NCBI GenBank assembly: GCA_903813345.2
Contig: CAIIXF020000010.1
Span: 5,137,169-5,201,168, forward strand
Length of the DNA stretch: 64,000 nucleotides
Source: Owenia fusiformis
Lineage: Eukaryota; Annelida; Polychaeta; Sabellida; Oweniidae
Direction of reading: 5' to 3'
Under the pieces are notes generated by a model. The model was not told where the DNA came from. It did no database searches and saw nothing but the letters and a program-made list of their open reading frames with translations. Each line of letters opens with the position of its first letter. Position 1 is the first letter of the stretch. Shown piece after piece: positions 44,877-60,520 of this stretch. A program made the translations under genes and the position numbers.

Positions 44877-45447
44877 AGAATAGCAGCTTTATGTCCGAAG
44901 AACACATCTTTTCCCCCATCTGCAGAACTTCCTTTTGTTAATACATTTTTTCATTTCCCCACGTATTTCACAAGTGAAAATTCCTCCACGTGCTATTATA
45001 GTATGCTGTCCACTGAGCGTCAATGGTGAGATGCCCGACCCTGATACAACTTTTATCTTTCTATTTACACTACAATGCAATAGTATATTGTGTGAAGCTT
45101 TGGTACTTTTAATGAGATTGAAACTATACGTAATAGACCTTGCAGTTGCATTTGGTTTGAGTTCAATGGCTTGTTTATGAGAAACACATGCGAGTGGTAT
45201 ATGAGAGTGATTCTGAAACAAGTTGACTTTTCTTCAGGTAGCAATATAACATTCGACTATTATATGACTGTATTCACCATCACGTCTTCTATAAACTGTG
45301 AACAAAGTAAGTTTCACCCTGTATTTATTCACGTGGTAATATGAGTAATATTTGGCGTATAATGGCGGACCATAATGACGATTCGGAAAGTTTTGTTGAG
45401 TTTTCATGTTTGAATCGTAATATTGACTTCACATTGAGTAGTAAATA

Positions 45448-45547: not shown

Positions 45548-45987
45548 ATATAATACCTGCTCTTCGGTCTATATTTCTAAATAAATTCAGACTTCAAAGT
45601 ATGACTTAAAAATTAAAAAGTAAAGGAGACTGAAGTCTCTTCTACTCACGTAAGTTCTGCTTCAATGAACATTGGTCCTTGTGGTCCTTCTCTAACAAAG
45701 GTGCATGAGTATGTGACAGTTATGTTATCACCAACCTTGATCTTCTGTGGGTTTTTGGGATAAGGGCCTACACACGAAATAGTACATGTAACAGCTTCTT
45801 CTGCCGCTGAAAGTTATATACATATTTATAATAGTTAAAACCCAGACAATCGTAAATTCATCCGTAATGTCTCGAAAATCTTTATTTAATTTAAAACTAT
45901 TTAGACCACCATTACATTTTCATGAGTTTTGATATTGTTTTTCATTTAAACAGTTTTATGCAAAATTTTTCTTAAACCTTGCCTCTT

Positions 45988-46079: not shown

Positions 46080-46641
46080 TCTTGTTATCAATTTTAAACA
46101 TAATCACATTCAATTGTTAATTGTGGTGTTTACCTTTGCATATTGCATTTTTGCAGAATCTATCCTTTTTACATTCTTGATGACGAGAGCATTGTTCGCC
46201 ATCAACCTTCTGTGGTTCGCAGTAGCCTTTCACAAGGGTCACTAGTCCCCCTGATGTGCAGTATTTTCTATTTCCCCCTTTGTACATCAAGCAGTCAACA
46301 TCAGCACGGCATCTCTCAGTACATCTTTTGTCTATAGTATATAAAATTATTTTAGTATTTAAAAAAATCAAGTTATTAATGAAAAAATTAATTATTTAAT
46401 TAATGCTTCACATTAGATAATTTGTTTTTTTGTTTGTTTGCTTGTTTCAATTAAAGTTACTGGTTTGAATAATGCTCATAAAGTACATTCAGACTATTTC
46501 AATGACATATGTATTACTACATGTATTGTTAGTACCTCAGTTGAAATACTCGATTTTGATTGGTCAACGAGCGGTGAATAATTTTAACTGTACACCGCGC
46601 AATGCATTGCCGGTGAATAATATTCCCAGCATTCCACTAAA

Positions 46642-47408: not shown

Positions 47409-47855
47409 CTGAACAGTAATATCTCACTTCATAATTTTGGCAGCTACTACCTGCCTCCTGTTGGTTATTGGTGCATCCTAACCCCCCTTCTACAGAACAG
47501 TTGGTAGACGTATCAAACACTTGCCCTGTTTCAAAAGCAGGAATATGGGTTTCTACTGTTCTGCATTCAATTGCTGTTGGGTTGTCACATGTCAGCATCT
47601 AGAAAATGACAAAATGTAAGCATTGAATGTCTGTTATAAAATTCAGTTGGATCAGATACATATATCGAATAAACGTATTACTTGCAGATATGTACAATAT
47701 CAATGACCACGTTATATAGAATTTGGATAAGGCAATCAACAAGGCAAGTTATGATCATAGAATTATGCTTACGCCTTCTTCCCTAAAATCCTCTGTTAAC
47801 TCATAATCACCCTTACCACTAGGTTTATCTTGATTTAACCATTCAGACCAGCCAA
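47409..47855 (-). other. Two-exon Mucin2 WxxW domain module inside P6
   Basis: Exon A 47855-47773 encodes GWSEWLNQDKPSGKGDYEL; exon B 47598-47409 encodes NPTAIECRTVET, ETGQVF, GLGCTNNQQ and CQNYEVRYYC. This is the pattern of the WxxW/CILP-type domain (W-x-x-W, D-E/Y-E, IECR, GL-C-N, C-x-x-YEVR-x-C) found in mucins and cartilage intermediate layer proteins. The pair begins in phase 1 and ends in phase 1 (273 nt), like the modules around it. Confidence 0.85.
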
Positions 47856-48358
47856 CTGGAAGGCAGATATTGGGTATTATATCAGGTATTCAGGTACTGA
47901 GTGACTTGGTACTAACATGTTCATTATTTTCTAAAATCCCAAAAACCAAGAAGGTCAAATTTTGCCCATCATTAGCAGGGCTCAAATAATTAAATTATTT
48001 TATTTTCACTTAAATCTGTGATTTATTTATATTAAATTTTTGTACAGTGGAACCAAAATAGATACTACTCTATTGCATTATGAGCAATTACAGCTAATTT
48101 TGATAATCAGTCTAAGTACAACAAAGTTTCTCTTGGTATGTCTAGCAATTGCGTGCGAAGAGATATCTGGACTATATTGTCACGCTCTGTCCACACCAGC
48201 TCTAAGTACATCTTGGCAGGTTCAAACACCTAAAAAAGCGGAGTTCTGAGACCAGTTTGGGATGTGAATATATATATTACTAGGTCTGGATTTAATATAG
48301 TTTATACTACTCACTACTTTCACATTGAGATCCTCCAATACATTCAACACTTCTATTA

Positions 48359-49447
48359 CAGGGTGGTCCAAAAAAAATTGGAACATTTGTTAATTGAACG
48401 CAAAACCTTTATTTTTCTTCTAAAATGCACCAAACTTTCACTGATCATAGTTCAGTCACTTATTTATCTGATGTAAAGTTTATAGGTGAAAACCACAATG
48501 TTAATGCATTAAACCATTCAATGTTGGATAGGAGCCCCCTTTCTTAAATATACACGTGTTAATTTCGCCGTTACTTTTTCAAGTATTCTTTATTTCAAAG
48601 CTTTAATGAACATGTTGATTGCTATAAACATATTATAAAATAATATCCAGTTGACAAGAGGTATTTACATCTGGGGTTTACCAGAAAAATATTGTGTTAA
48701 TACCAAATTAAACGATACCCAGAATGATAATTTTCATTTAAGAGTAGGGAAGAAGGAACATGTCAGAGGTGAGCAATTGCATAACCCTCACAGCTACTAT
48801 AGTAACAAAAGAATTGTTCCCACTTTTCAGTAAAGGCAAAACTGACCAGTTATTCACAAAGTTTTATTAAAAACCTACGCTAAGCACATATAATTATCAT
48901 CTGTGTTATTGGAGACTCTTCTATGATACTGACATGCATATTGATATATCCAATGAATATTATTCATATCAGAACAATAAAGGGGAGGGCCGGCTTCATT
49001 TACCAGTCAAATCAGACTGCCCCGAACTCTTTCTGGAGAATATGCAATCAGTAATATATCCAACGCCATCAGAATATGCTTGATACCCATCAATTTGGGT
49101 AAAAAATGTTGAATATTTTACTAGATTTGATCTTCCAAGGCAAACAAATAGGAAGGTTGATCAAACTGAATTTTTAGTCAAGATTGCTTTGACAAAACAA
49201 ACGATCAGCAAACTTATTGAATATTTACAAATCTGAATCCCAGCTTCAACTTGTAATTCAGGAGAAGAGGGGTCATATCAAACATTGACTAGTTTAATGC
49301 ATTAACTTTGTTGTATGCAACTATAAACTTTACATCAGATAGAAAAGTGGCTGGCCTCTTCTCAGTAAAGTTTTGGTGCATTTTAGAGAAAAAATAAAGA
49401 TTTTGTGTTCAATTAACAAATGTTCCAATTTTTTTTGGACCACCCTG
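48359..49447. mobile_element. Palindromic TA-flanked element, 1089 bp, inside P6 exon 2
   Basis: Ends CAGGGTGGTCCAAAAAAAA and its complement, flanked by TA at 48357-48358 and 49448-49449. Long arms pair (TCTGATGTAAAGTTTATAG, TAATGCATTAAAC on both strands). No transposase motif. P7 exon 2 and P5 exon 2 give the empty site. Confidence 0.9.
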
Positions 49448-49770
49448 TACAAGCCCCTGGAGGTTTAATCATCTTTGCACATTTTCCATCTTTACAGTAC
49501 CATTTTGAGGGACAATAGCCATGGTCATCACAGTCTTTCGCTTTAACTTCAAACAACAAAAGCAAATGTTTATATGTTCTGACCATTATATTTGATTTAG
49601 GTTTTTGATTAATAATGTGTATATAATATTTTTAATTCACAATACCTACCTGTGAACACAACTACACCTATGAGATATATTATTAGACCCTGCATAATTC
49701 TTCCAGCTCCTTAGTAACAAGGAAGCAAATTATGTCTGTGAACCTGAATTCTCTGAGAGTTTATAGTCTT

Positions 49771-57612: not shown

Positions 57613-60520
57613 CTACTTTTGACCAGCATATAAGTAACAGTGTCTGTTAGCCTGACAGGATGGCTTTAAGTTTACACATGGCTTCATTACTGCTGCAATA
57701 TTGGCAGTGAACTCTCCCTTCTTGGCCACTTTGGTAAGGTACCCACTGAATATTAATGGTGATAGACCCCGGATTTTGCCAAGTAAATCTTTTTTGTCAT
57801 ATCTAAAGTAGGAATAAAAATAGTTAGTATATTAACATGCTTCATTGCACAAAATTAGGAGCAGATGTGTTATGGTTGTGCTCTTTATTGTTGCGAGTCT
57901 TATTGTCACAATAAATGAGGTTGTAACTTGATACCTGACCATGGCATGGACGACTAATTGTTGTCATATTCAAAATAATGGCCATTTCGTGTGACACAGC
58001 ATATTCAACATGCATTCCAAGTTTTTAAGACCCCAAGTGGCTGTGTATTGCAAGGGGGTTTGAAATGCATTTTGAGATCACCCTACAGTATGGCTTTATT
58101 ACATTATAACTGTAGAGTTAATAATTTGCTGGAGAAGTTCGATTAACATACCTGATCCTAGCTGTTAGATTCTGATGTCCAAACTGCCCTCTGCGTACAA
58201 AGTCACAATGATAGGTGACATTTACAATGGATCCTGGTCTTATGTGATCAGGTCTTTCTAGGTTTGGTCCATAGCAGCTCAGACGGCATTGAACAATTTG
58301 CACTGCCACTGTCATGAGGAAATATTAACAAAGATGAAATATGACATCCAGAAAAATATTACAATGATATTTTGTTTCGTTTATTGATTTAATTGATGAG
58401 ATTGACGTGAAATTGATACAAGGAATACCCATAGAGATGTTATAAGTGTTCAAGATTGTTCTGAATATCTTTTAATTCACCATGACAATGAACTATGGGA
58501 TTTGAAATATGTCTGAAAACTTGATGGTCAGATTGACAGTCATTATCTATAGGCAGGTTATAGTTTGGAAGCTACATTGGTTTCCATTGCGCTTCAATGC
58601 ATTCTTATTGTTACTATTTTGTTTAATGACCAGTGATTCCAAATGTTCTACTCTAATTTATAAACATGTACACATTACAGCTCTATACTTGCCCAGGCAT
58701 TGTCCATTTCTGCAGAACATTTTCCCTTGGCATTCAGCGCTTCTTCCACATCGATATCCTCTCTCGTGCTTCATCTCACATCTGCCTTTCTGTGTTCCAC
58801 CCAACCCTCCAGCAGTACAGTACTTGTTTCTACCATTCCTGTGCTGTAAGCAGTCATTGTCAACTTTGCATGTCTCCTCACATGTTCCTACAAATGTATT
58901 CCATTCTGTTAACATTTATTGAAAATATTTACATTTGTGTCTCGATGGATATAATTAAATAGGTGTAGTATACACATTCAGCAAGTAATGCCTTTGACTG
59001 ATTTATTTTTTGTATCACAGTTATTCTTCAACAAAAACAAATAATTTGATGAATTAAATATTTTGTTTACAGATATACAGATCTTACATGATGAATACTT
59101 CTATGAACTGATTTTGGTTTAAAAAATGTGTTTAAAAATATATATTTATTAGTAGATAAAACTGAAATATATTGTGATAAGGATAACTGACTTATAATTA
59201 ATGTTATGAATGATGAAAACGTATATTACCGTTTCCCAATGGCACACATTTGGAAAGCTGAATACATTCATCATTTTTTCTGCAGGGTTTCCCTATGCCT
59301 ACCATAGGCACGCATTTATGTAATTTTTTGTCACACCAATATTTATATTTGCATTCTCCGCTGAAGTTGCAGTCACTTTGGACTCCCAGCACTCCTAGTT
59401 AGAAAATATGTTTTTATTGTTTCTTATCCATTAACCCTAGAAGCCCTAAGGTAAAAATAGTCACACGAACACCCAAGGGGAGTCAAAAGGGCACCCCCCT
59501 TGTAAAAATTTAATTAGGAGAGCTAGGATGTTCAAACTTTTTCCACATATACTTCATTCAATTATCTACAAGTTTGTGTAATAAGTTTAACAACTACGAT
59601 GATGTAAGATTGCGTAATTTTATTCTTAAGACAACACGTATGGTAGAATTAGTGCTAGCTTTTTTCTGATTTTTGTCTATTGGAGCTGATGATTACATCG
59701 CAATAAATTAATAACACATATGTAAAGTTAGGATGTTCAATTTTTCCCAAAATATACTTCATTCATTTATCTACAACTTGGTGTAATAACTTTAACAACT
59801 ATGATGATGGAAGATTGTGTAATCTTATTCTAAAGATAACACGTATGGTAGAAAAAGTGCTAGCTTTTTTCTGATTTTGTCTATTGCAGCTGATGATTAC
59901 ATCATAATAAATCAATTATCCTATGTACAATTTTGCTGATTTTTTCAGGAAACATTTGTCATATATGTAGCTTTAGCTACTGAAAATTTGAAGACCCTAC
60001 CAGATGCCAATAAAAAGTTATGGGGAAAAACATAACGGGGGGTCATTTTGACCCCCCGCCCCCTTAGGGCTTCTAGGGTTAAAAGAGTCGTAGACTTCTG
60101 ATGCTAACTATATAGCCCAAGATTTTTTTCATAATGATCTGTAAATTGCATTAAGGTTTGTATAATGATTTTATATCTCTCATCTTTTAATTGATTAATT
60201 AATTTATTAATTAAGTCAATTGATTAATTCTCTTTGAAAATTACAGTTAAGCCTCAATGAATTGTGCAAGTTAAATATCTTTACAAATCTATATTTTAGG
60301 GGTAACATTTATATTTTTTGTCAAAATTCAATCTAAAACAAAATTAAAAAATGTAAATCTATGTTTACGAGTAAATATTTCTTTTAAGACCCTGATTACT
60401 AAGTTTTTAAGTCAATGTTAATAAGGAGTTTTAAGTATTACATTTAAGTATGAGATAATAATATAAGTTCCTCTTACCTGTTGTTGCTATGATGACAACT
60501 GCTAATAAGAAGGCACTCAT
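57613..60520 (-). CDS. P8: secreted cysteine-rich protein, 249 aa
   Basis: Exons on the minus strand: 60520-60478, 59394-59230, 58887-58693, 58308-58152, 57802-57613; phases 1,1,1,2. Leader MSAFLLAVVIIATTG. Exon 2 carries DCNFSGECKYKYWC and NDECIQLSKC. Exon 3 carries TCEETCKVDNDC and GTQKGRCEMKHERGYRCG. Exon 4 has VNVTYHCDFVRRGQFG; exon 5 ends CYLYAGQK. These match P4 closely, making an A-type subfamily. The intron after exon 3 appears to use a GC donor (G|GCAAGT). The frame is intact and the gene looks functional. Intron 1 contains a piggyBac-like element. Confidence 0.85.
59435..60078. mobile_element. piggyBac-like non-autonomous element, 644 bp, in P8 intron 1
   Basis: Ends CCCTAGAAGCCCTAAG and its complement, flanked by TTAA at 59431-59434 and 60079-60082, which fits piggyBac target choice and CCCTAGA-type ends. 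The inside is mainly two tandem copies of a unit of about 205 bp (from about 59520 and 59726). Confidence 0.85.
59520..59930. repeat. Tandem repeat, about 205 bp x 2, inside the piggyBac-like element
   Basis: Both copies contain TATACTTCATTCA, TTTAACAACTA, ACACGTATGGTAGAA and AGTGCTAGCTTTTTTCTGAT. Confidence 0.85.

What the first reader, a model, noticed from the sequence alone, without database searches (positions are those of the whole stretch)
47409..47855. Exon shuffling: a Mucin2 WxxW domain inserted into P6 as a phase 1-1 module
Two exons encoding a WxxW domain sit between exons 2 and 3 of P6 with matching phases, good splice sites and the same strand. No other paralog has them. The intron phases fit classical 1-1 module shuffling, and WxxW domains are extracellular, consistent with a secreted host protein.
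Basis: partly seen in the sequence, partly recalled or inferred. Interest (0 to 1): 0.8.

Follow-up and report, generated by a model that had tools for sequence, protein, structure and literature searches.

The report
Recently shuffled mucin-type CysD (WxxW) domain
A small secreted-type animal gene has gained a mucin-type domain as a roughly 540-base piece of DNA, introns included, that closely matches part of a cartilage-protein-like gene on another chromosome; it is a recent, still traceable case of a known process, exon shuffling.

Summary
The two WxxW exons (Pfam Mucin2_WxxW, the mucin CysD type) are real, at the stated coordinates, with intron phases 1-0-1. The claim that no other paralog has them is wrong for the genome. 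A sister gene 15.2 Mb away on the same contig (C10:20.39 Mb) carries the same module in the same place and reads as one 332-aa frame over seven exons. Of 25 exon-3 matches of this family, only P6 and this sister have a WxxW match beside them. The nearest source is a CILP-like gene on contig C4 (1.504 Mb). The DNA match (76%) covers both exons, the intron between them, 39 bases of left flank and about 22 of right flank, then stops. Silent divergence favours the order: host paralogs split (0.68), module captured (0.42), host block duplicated (0.15-0.25). So exon shuffling is supported, but in the ancestor of P6, not in P6. P6 itself is probably a damaged copy: a 1.09 kb inverted-repeat element interrupts its exon 2. 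One discordance stays open: the C4 gene's CILP body looks younger than its WxxW part, which may be gene conversion or a second module move. No transcript evidence was available.

The parts
49650..49695 (-). P6 exon 1, signal-peptide-like, ends in phase 1
   Evidence: no signal-peptide predictor was run
49448..49546 (-). P6 exon 2, first part (EB/Dickkopf_N-like cysteine module)
   Evidence: all three Pfam matches below cut-off
48358..49447 (.). inverted-repeat element of about 1,090 bases inside exon 2, TA at both edges
   Evidence: repeated family
48315..48356 (-). P6 exon 2, second part, ends in phase 1
47773..47855 (-). WxxW exon 1 (phase 1 to phase 0)
47409..47598 (-). WxxW exon 2 (phase 0 to phase 1)
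46134..46331 (-). P6 exon 3, second EB/Dickkopf_N-like cysteine module
   Evidence: Pfam matches below cut-off
45650..45806 (-). P6 exon 4, first half of an unclassified C-terminal domain
   Evidence: no Pfam match
44889..45069 (-). P6 exon 5, second half of the C-terminal domain and stop

Best explanation
The WxxW/CysD domain of P6 is a class 1-1 exon-shuffled module. In the common ancestor of P6 and its sister at C10:20.39 Mb, a DNA segment of about 540 bases entered the phase-1 intron 2 of a secreted-type gene with two EB/Dickkopf_N-like cysteine modules. The segment held two WxxW exons, their internal intron, about 39 bases of upstream flank with the 3' splice site and about 22 bases of downstream flank with the 5' splice site. 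It came from a CILP-like gene whose nearest relative in this genome is at C4:1.504 Mb. Phase 1 on both sides lets it be read in frame. SHOWN by sequence: the domain, the phases, the open 332-aa frame of the sister, the intron DNA shared with C4:1.504 Mb, and no WxxW match beside the other 23 of 25 exon-3 loci. INFERRED: direction of transfer (CILP-like gene to host), a single origin, the order of events from silent divergence, splicing and secretion of the product. GUESSED: the physical route, for example repair of a break with a copied fragment. Afterwards the host block was duplicated; the window copy then took an element into exon 2 and probably no longer makes a full product. By analogy with mucin CysD domains, the module most likely adds a protein-protein contact surface to a secreted cysteine-rich protein.
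For: WxxW match 82.5 bits. Sister with the whole chimera in frame. DNA match of module plus introns to C4:1504028-1504543, 76%. Internal intron z 29.8 to C4:1.504 against 2.4, -0.3, -0.9 to the three other C4 loci. Homology ends on both sides, with a positive control at z 92.4. C4 gene: signal-peptide-like exon in phase 1, WxxW, then CILP, CILP_C and CILP_5th over their cut-offs. 2 of 25 exon-3 loci have WxxW. Silent divergence 0.685 > 0.418 > 0.249/0.153, in 93.6% and 92.0-98.9% of bootstraps. Exon-2 tree of 40 rows puts P6 and sister with the C4 domains, 97/88.
Against: The CILP bodies of C4:1.504 and C4:1.443 differ by dS 0.37, their WxxW parts by 1.25, so the C4 gene is not of one age throughout. 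The link to C4:1.504 in the exon-2 tree is only 90/68, and the 23-row two-exon tree leaves P6+sister, C4:1.504, the other C4 and the C10 groups unresolved. A repeat lies about 25 bases beyond the left edge on the C4 side, so that edge may be a later break. The bootstraps do not reach 95% for two of the steps. No transcripts.
Confidence: 0.83

Rival explanations
1. Reverse direction: the module sat in the P6-type gene first and was copied from there into the CILP-like gene at C4:1.504, replacing its own WxxW exons.
For: The WxxW part of C4:1.504 is far from that of C4:1.443 (dS 1.25) while the CILP bodies are close (0.37), and it is close to the P6 type (0.40-0.42).
Against: The end of WxxW exon 2 in C4:1.504 has the CILP-type extension (CPEDVHG, compare CPEEDNG in C4:1.443), which P6 and sister lack. 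Only 2 of 25 host exon-3 loci have the module, while all four C4 WxxW loci have it. The C4 body match stops at the exon edges, as exon-limited gene conversion would give.
Confidence: 0.08
2. The WxxW exons are a separate small gene nested in intron 2, with its own ends.
For: Read on past its splice site in P6, WxxW exon 2 meets a stop codon at once (ORF ends ...YYCSGW).
Against: No signal-peptide-like start exon found in the upstream intron of either copy by a simple scan. Matching phases on both sides, and in the sister an open frame across all seven exons with a gtgagt donor after the module.
Confidence: 0.03
3. The module is ancestral in the host family and was lost from the other members.
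For: General knowledge only: members of tandem families do lose exons.
Against: It needs loss in the lineages of the other 23 exon-3 loci, and the intron-level match to one C4 gene would still need a transfer.
Confidence: 0.03

Closest known systems
Class 1-1 module exon shuffling by insertion into an intron (reviewed in PMC8001218; passages seen)
   Same: Domain bounded by introns of the same phase (1-1), a multiple of three bases, placed in a phase-1 intron of a secreted-type protein.
   Different: Recent enough that the internal intron and short flanks still match a donor-type gene in the same genome. WxxW, CILP and mucin are not named in the main text of that review (0 occurrences each).
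Mucin CysD / Mucin2_WxxW domain (MUC2, MUC5AC, MUC5B)
   Same: Full-length match to the Pfam model; the best PDB matches are MUC5B, MUC5AC and MUC2; WxxW motif present and six cysteines aligned with MUC5B.
   Different: A single copy between two other cysteine modules; nothing mucin-like was found in the rest of the protein by Pfam.
CILP-like genes (cartilage intermediate layer protein)
   Same: The module's nearest DNA relative sits in one, after a signal-peptide-like exon, with the same phases.
   Different: The host has no CILP domain.
Dickkopf_N / EB cysteine modules
   Same: Two paralogs without WxxW, P5 and the L009 A gene, score over the Dickkopf_N cut-off (37.9 and 41.7 against 25 bits).
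   Different: The chimera scores below it (17.0), and the C-terminal domain matched no Pfam family and gave only one PDB hit at E 0.68.

Membership tests
Class 1-1 exon-shuffled module | Introns at both domain edges, same phase (1-1), length a multiple of three | tested here: met
   83 + 190 = 273 bases; phase 1 on both sides in P6 and in the sister.
Class 1-1 exon-shuffled module | Present in the recipient, absent from most paralogs, with an identifiable source elsewhere | tested here: met
   2 of 25 exon-3 loci have it; source type at C4:1.504 Mb with shared intron DNA.
Class 1-1 exon-shuffled module | Spliced into the recipient's mRNA | not testable with these tools
   No transcript data; only splice sites and an open frame in the sister.
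Mucin2_WxxW (CysD) domain | Score over the Pfam cut-off over the whole model | tested here: met
   82.5 bits against 22.4, model positions 1-88 of 88; 78.7 bits in the sister.
CILP family (for the donor-type gene) | CILP domains downstream of WxxW | tested here: met
   CILP 73.8, CILP_C 53.9, CILP_5th 39.3 bits, each over its cut-off of 27. That WxxW and body are one transcript is inferred.
Dickkopf family (for the host) | Dickkopf_N over cut-off plus a C-terminal colipase-like domain (second feature recalled) | tested here: not met
   Dickkopf_N over cut-off in two non-WxxW paralogs, not in the chimera; no colipase-like match in any of the three proteins scanned. Not filed as Dickkopf.

The most novel reading that the evidence does not exclude
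The WxxW cassette is itself unusually mobile. The age mismatch inside the C4:1.504 CILP-like gene (WxxW part dS 1.25, body dS 0.37 to its neighbour at 1.443 Mb) would mean that the two-exon cassette has moved between unlinked genes more than once, as short DNA pieces cut close to the splice sites, so that shuffling of one domain can be followed within a single genome.
Probability: 0.1. Interest if true: 0.75.

Novelty: new member of a known kind. Interest (0 to 1): 0.5.

Why it matters
Insertion of exons into introns is mostly inferred from intron phases in old genes; a survey of animal domain gains put it below 10% of high-confidence cases (PMC2926785, abstract and other passages seen). Here the recipient, a donor-type gene, the matching intron DNA and paralogs without the module lie in one genome, so the size of the moved piece, its edges and the order of events can be measured instead of assumed. 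I did not search the literature for this domain combination in annelids or other animals beyond the searches named under Tried and rejected.

Tried and rejected
A second WxxW trace in the window at 58018-58068 (+) was rejected as chance: it is on the strand opposite to the neighbouring host exons (58882-58154, -), covers 17 residues, and is not in the PF13330 list.

The C10:28.5 Mb cluster (21 of the 50 PF13330 matches) was considered as donor; rejected because its members match only around exon 2 and lie in other branches of the exon-2 tree.

A COX1 search meant to identify the organism found nothing (0 matches in 1 genome). The species is inferred from size only: 498.26 Mb, large contigs seen up to number C12, against 505.8 Mb and 12 chromosome-scale scaffolds for Owenia fusiformis (PMC9977687, passages). 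Not proven.

A target-site duplication at the module edges was sought: longest exact repeat 5 bases, uninformative. Stronger purifying selection on the module than on host exons was tested between P6 and sister: not significant (p 0.06, and 0.18 without exon 5). No fold was predicted: the protein is readable only across introns. The PDB search of the C-terminal domain gave one hit at E 0.68, not used.

Rows dropped: 40 of the 50 PF13330 matches went into the domain collection. Of the other ten, six were not fetched and four gave no usable exon-2 hit (L027 was left out by name). All 40 are in the exon-2 tree; 23 are in the two-exon tree, 17 being left out (8 without an exon 1 found, 1 with a stop in it, 8 with doubtful pairing).

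Paper searches: 'WxxW domain' 3 papers, listing only; 'CysD domain' + mucin + CILP 0 papers; 'CysD' + 'exon shuffling' 1 paper, whose passages name exon shuffling only for other protein families. Searches for exon shuffling and gel-forming mucins gave listings.

Full report
Observation. On the minus strand P6 runs from 49695 to 44889. Two exons at 47855-47773 and 47598-47409 lie between exon 2 (ends 48315) and exon 3 (starts 46331). The flanking introns are phase 1, the internal intron phase 0, and the 273-base module keeps the frame. Its translation matches Mucin2_WxxW over the whole model at 82.5 bits. Among solved structures the nine best of eleven listed matches are mucins, led by MUC5B, MUC5AC and MUC2.

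Not unique. A genome search with WxxW exon 2 gave 44 matches; after P6 itself the best, at 95%, is C10:20390041-20390232. A search with P6 exons 3-5 gave 70 matches, 25 of which begin at the start of exon 3 (one, at P7, is a 26-residue fragment). Only P6 and the C10:20.39 locus have a WxxW match beside them. The C10:20.39 gene (L009 4180-7001) has the exons of P6 in the same order and phases, with an uninterrupted exon 2, and reads as 332 aa without a stop. Upstream of it lies a copy of the window's P7 in the same order and relative orientation, so P7-P6 is a duplicated block.

Source. A DNA search with the sister's module and introns gave 21 rows: the sister itself, P6 (87%), C4:1504028-1504543 (76%) and 18 shorter matches around exon 2. 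The C4 match covers both exons and the intron between them. The internal intron scores far above shuffles against C4:1.504 (z 29.8) but not against the three other C4 loci (z 2.4, -0.3, -0.9). Homology reaches 39 bases upstream of exon 1 and about 22 bases downstream of exon 2, counted by eye on the printed flanks; the first 60 bases on the right score z 5.9. Beyond that nothing is found on either side (z between -1.1 and 1.2), while the same test recovers P6 against its sister at z 92.4. On the C4 side a repeat family comes within about 25 bases of the left edge, so that edge could be a later break. The sister's own left flank matched only itself and P6 in the genome.

The C4 gene. About 2.9 kb downstream of the C4 module is a 769-aa open frame with CILP, CILP_C and CILP_5th domains over cut-off. 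Upstream is a signal-peptide-like exon that ends in phase 1. Three other C4 loci have the same WxxW type; CILP_5th was scored for the one at 1.443 Mb, and frames with the same kind of body are seen in L012, L013 and L031. WxxW exon 2 of C4:1.504 carries a short end (CPEDVHG) like that of C4:1.443 (CPEEDNG). P6 and sister lack it: their exon is 12 bases shorter and still ends in phase 1.

Timing. Silent divergence (NG86, 2,000 codon bootstraps): sister against the L009 A gene 1.174, against P5 0.685 (0.50-0.95); module, C4 against sister 0.418 (0.22-0.73); host exons 3-5, sister against P6 0.249 (0.16-0.36); module, sister against P6 0.153 (0.06-0.28). The order host split, capture, duplication is favoured, not proven. 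Host split before capture holds in 93.6% of bootstraps. Capture before duplication holds in 92.0% by host exons and 98.9% by the module. Between P6 and sister the module has 4 non-synonymous and 8 synonymous changes; the contrast with host exons is not significant (p 0.06; 0.18 without exon 5).

Against a simple story. The CILP bodies of C4:1.504 and C4:1.443 differ by dS 0.37 (0.15-0.83 along the exon), their WxxW parts by 1.25. The body aligns at 85% but only within the exon. I read this as gene conversion of the large exon within a tandem cluster, because intron DNA at a similar silent distance still aligns elsewhere here (the module's own intron). Replacement of the WxxW part, with reverse direction, remains possible at about 8%. 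In the exon-2 tree of 40 rows P6 and sister join the C4 domains (97/88); the special link to C4:1.504 is weaker (90/68). In the two-exon tree of 23 rows these groups are unresolved.

State of P6. An element of about 1,090 bases with near-perfect inverted ends and TA at both edges lies in exon 2, and the frame meets a stop shortly inside it. Of 452 candidate places for its first 133 bases, 40 were scored; one elsewhere (C11) is identical, which suggests a recent insertion. Whether transcripts tolerate it is not known. The donor site after WxxW exon 2 is weaker in P6 than in the sister. The neighbouring P7 looks broken as well, while its partner in L009 is open. The window block is therefore probably the decaying copy.

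How it most likely works. A class 1-1 module placed in a phase-1 intron is spliced in without disturbing the frame, the standard logic of module shuffling (PMC8001218, passages). The product would be a small secreted protein with a CysD domain between two cysteine modules and an unclassified C-terminal domain. CysD domains make protein-protein contacts in mucin assembly (PMC9169620, passages); the same role here is an analogy. Secretion and splicing were not tested.

Verdict. Exon shuffling: supported, with a donor-type gene, measurable edges and an intact second copy. Specific to P6: wrong. Kind of process: known. Value: a recent case in which the moved piece can be measured.

Noticed in passing
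window 49447-48358: Element of about 1,090 bases with near-perfect terminal inverted repeats and TA at both edges, inside a coding exon; a 133-base end is identical to one at C11:19288671.
   Followed up: partly
window 53470-51180 (-), P7: Neighbouring paralog that looks like a pseudogene (frame breaks in exons 2, 3 and 5 by reading against its intact partner in L009 317-2352).
   Followed up: partly
window 47200-47060 and 46926-46621: The intron after the module is 1,077 bases in P6 against 213 in the sister; it holds a palindromic stretch and a 101-aa + strand frame without a Pfam match over cut-off. It looks like repeat DNA.
   Followed up: partly
L029, L031 with L013 (C4:1.44-1.50 Mb): CILP-like genes whose large exons are much closer (dS 0.37) than their WxxW parts (1.25) and than their introns, which do not align beside the exon.
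   Followed up: partly
C10:28.50-28.63 Mb (L010, L019-L025): Dense cluster with 21 of the 50 PF13330 matches of the genome, some loci with short tandem partial copies of WxxW exon 2 (L021, L024).
   Followed up: no
C7:8.22-8.25 Mb (L001-L008): 14 of the 50 PF13330 matches, most of them reading exon 1 and exon 2 of the domain in one open frame, without the internal intron.
   Followed up: no
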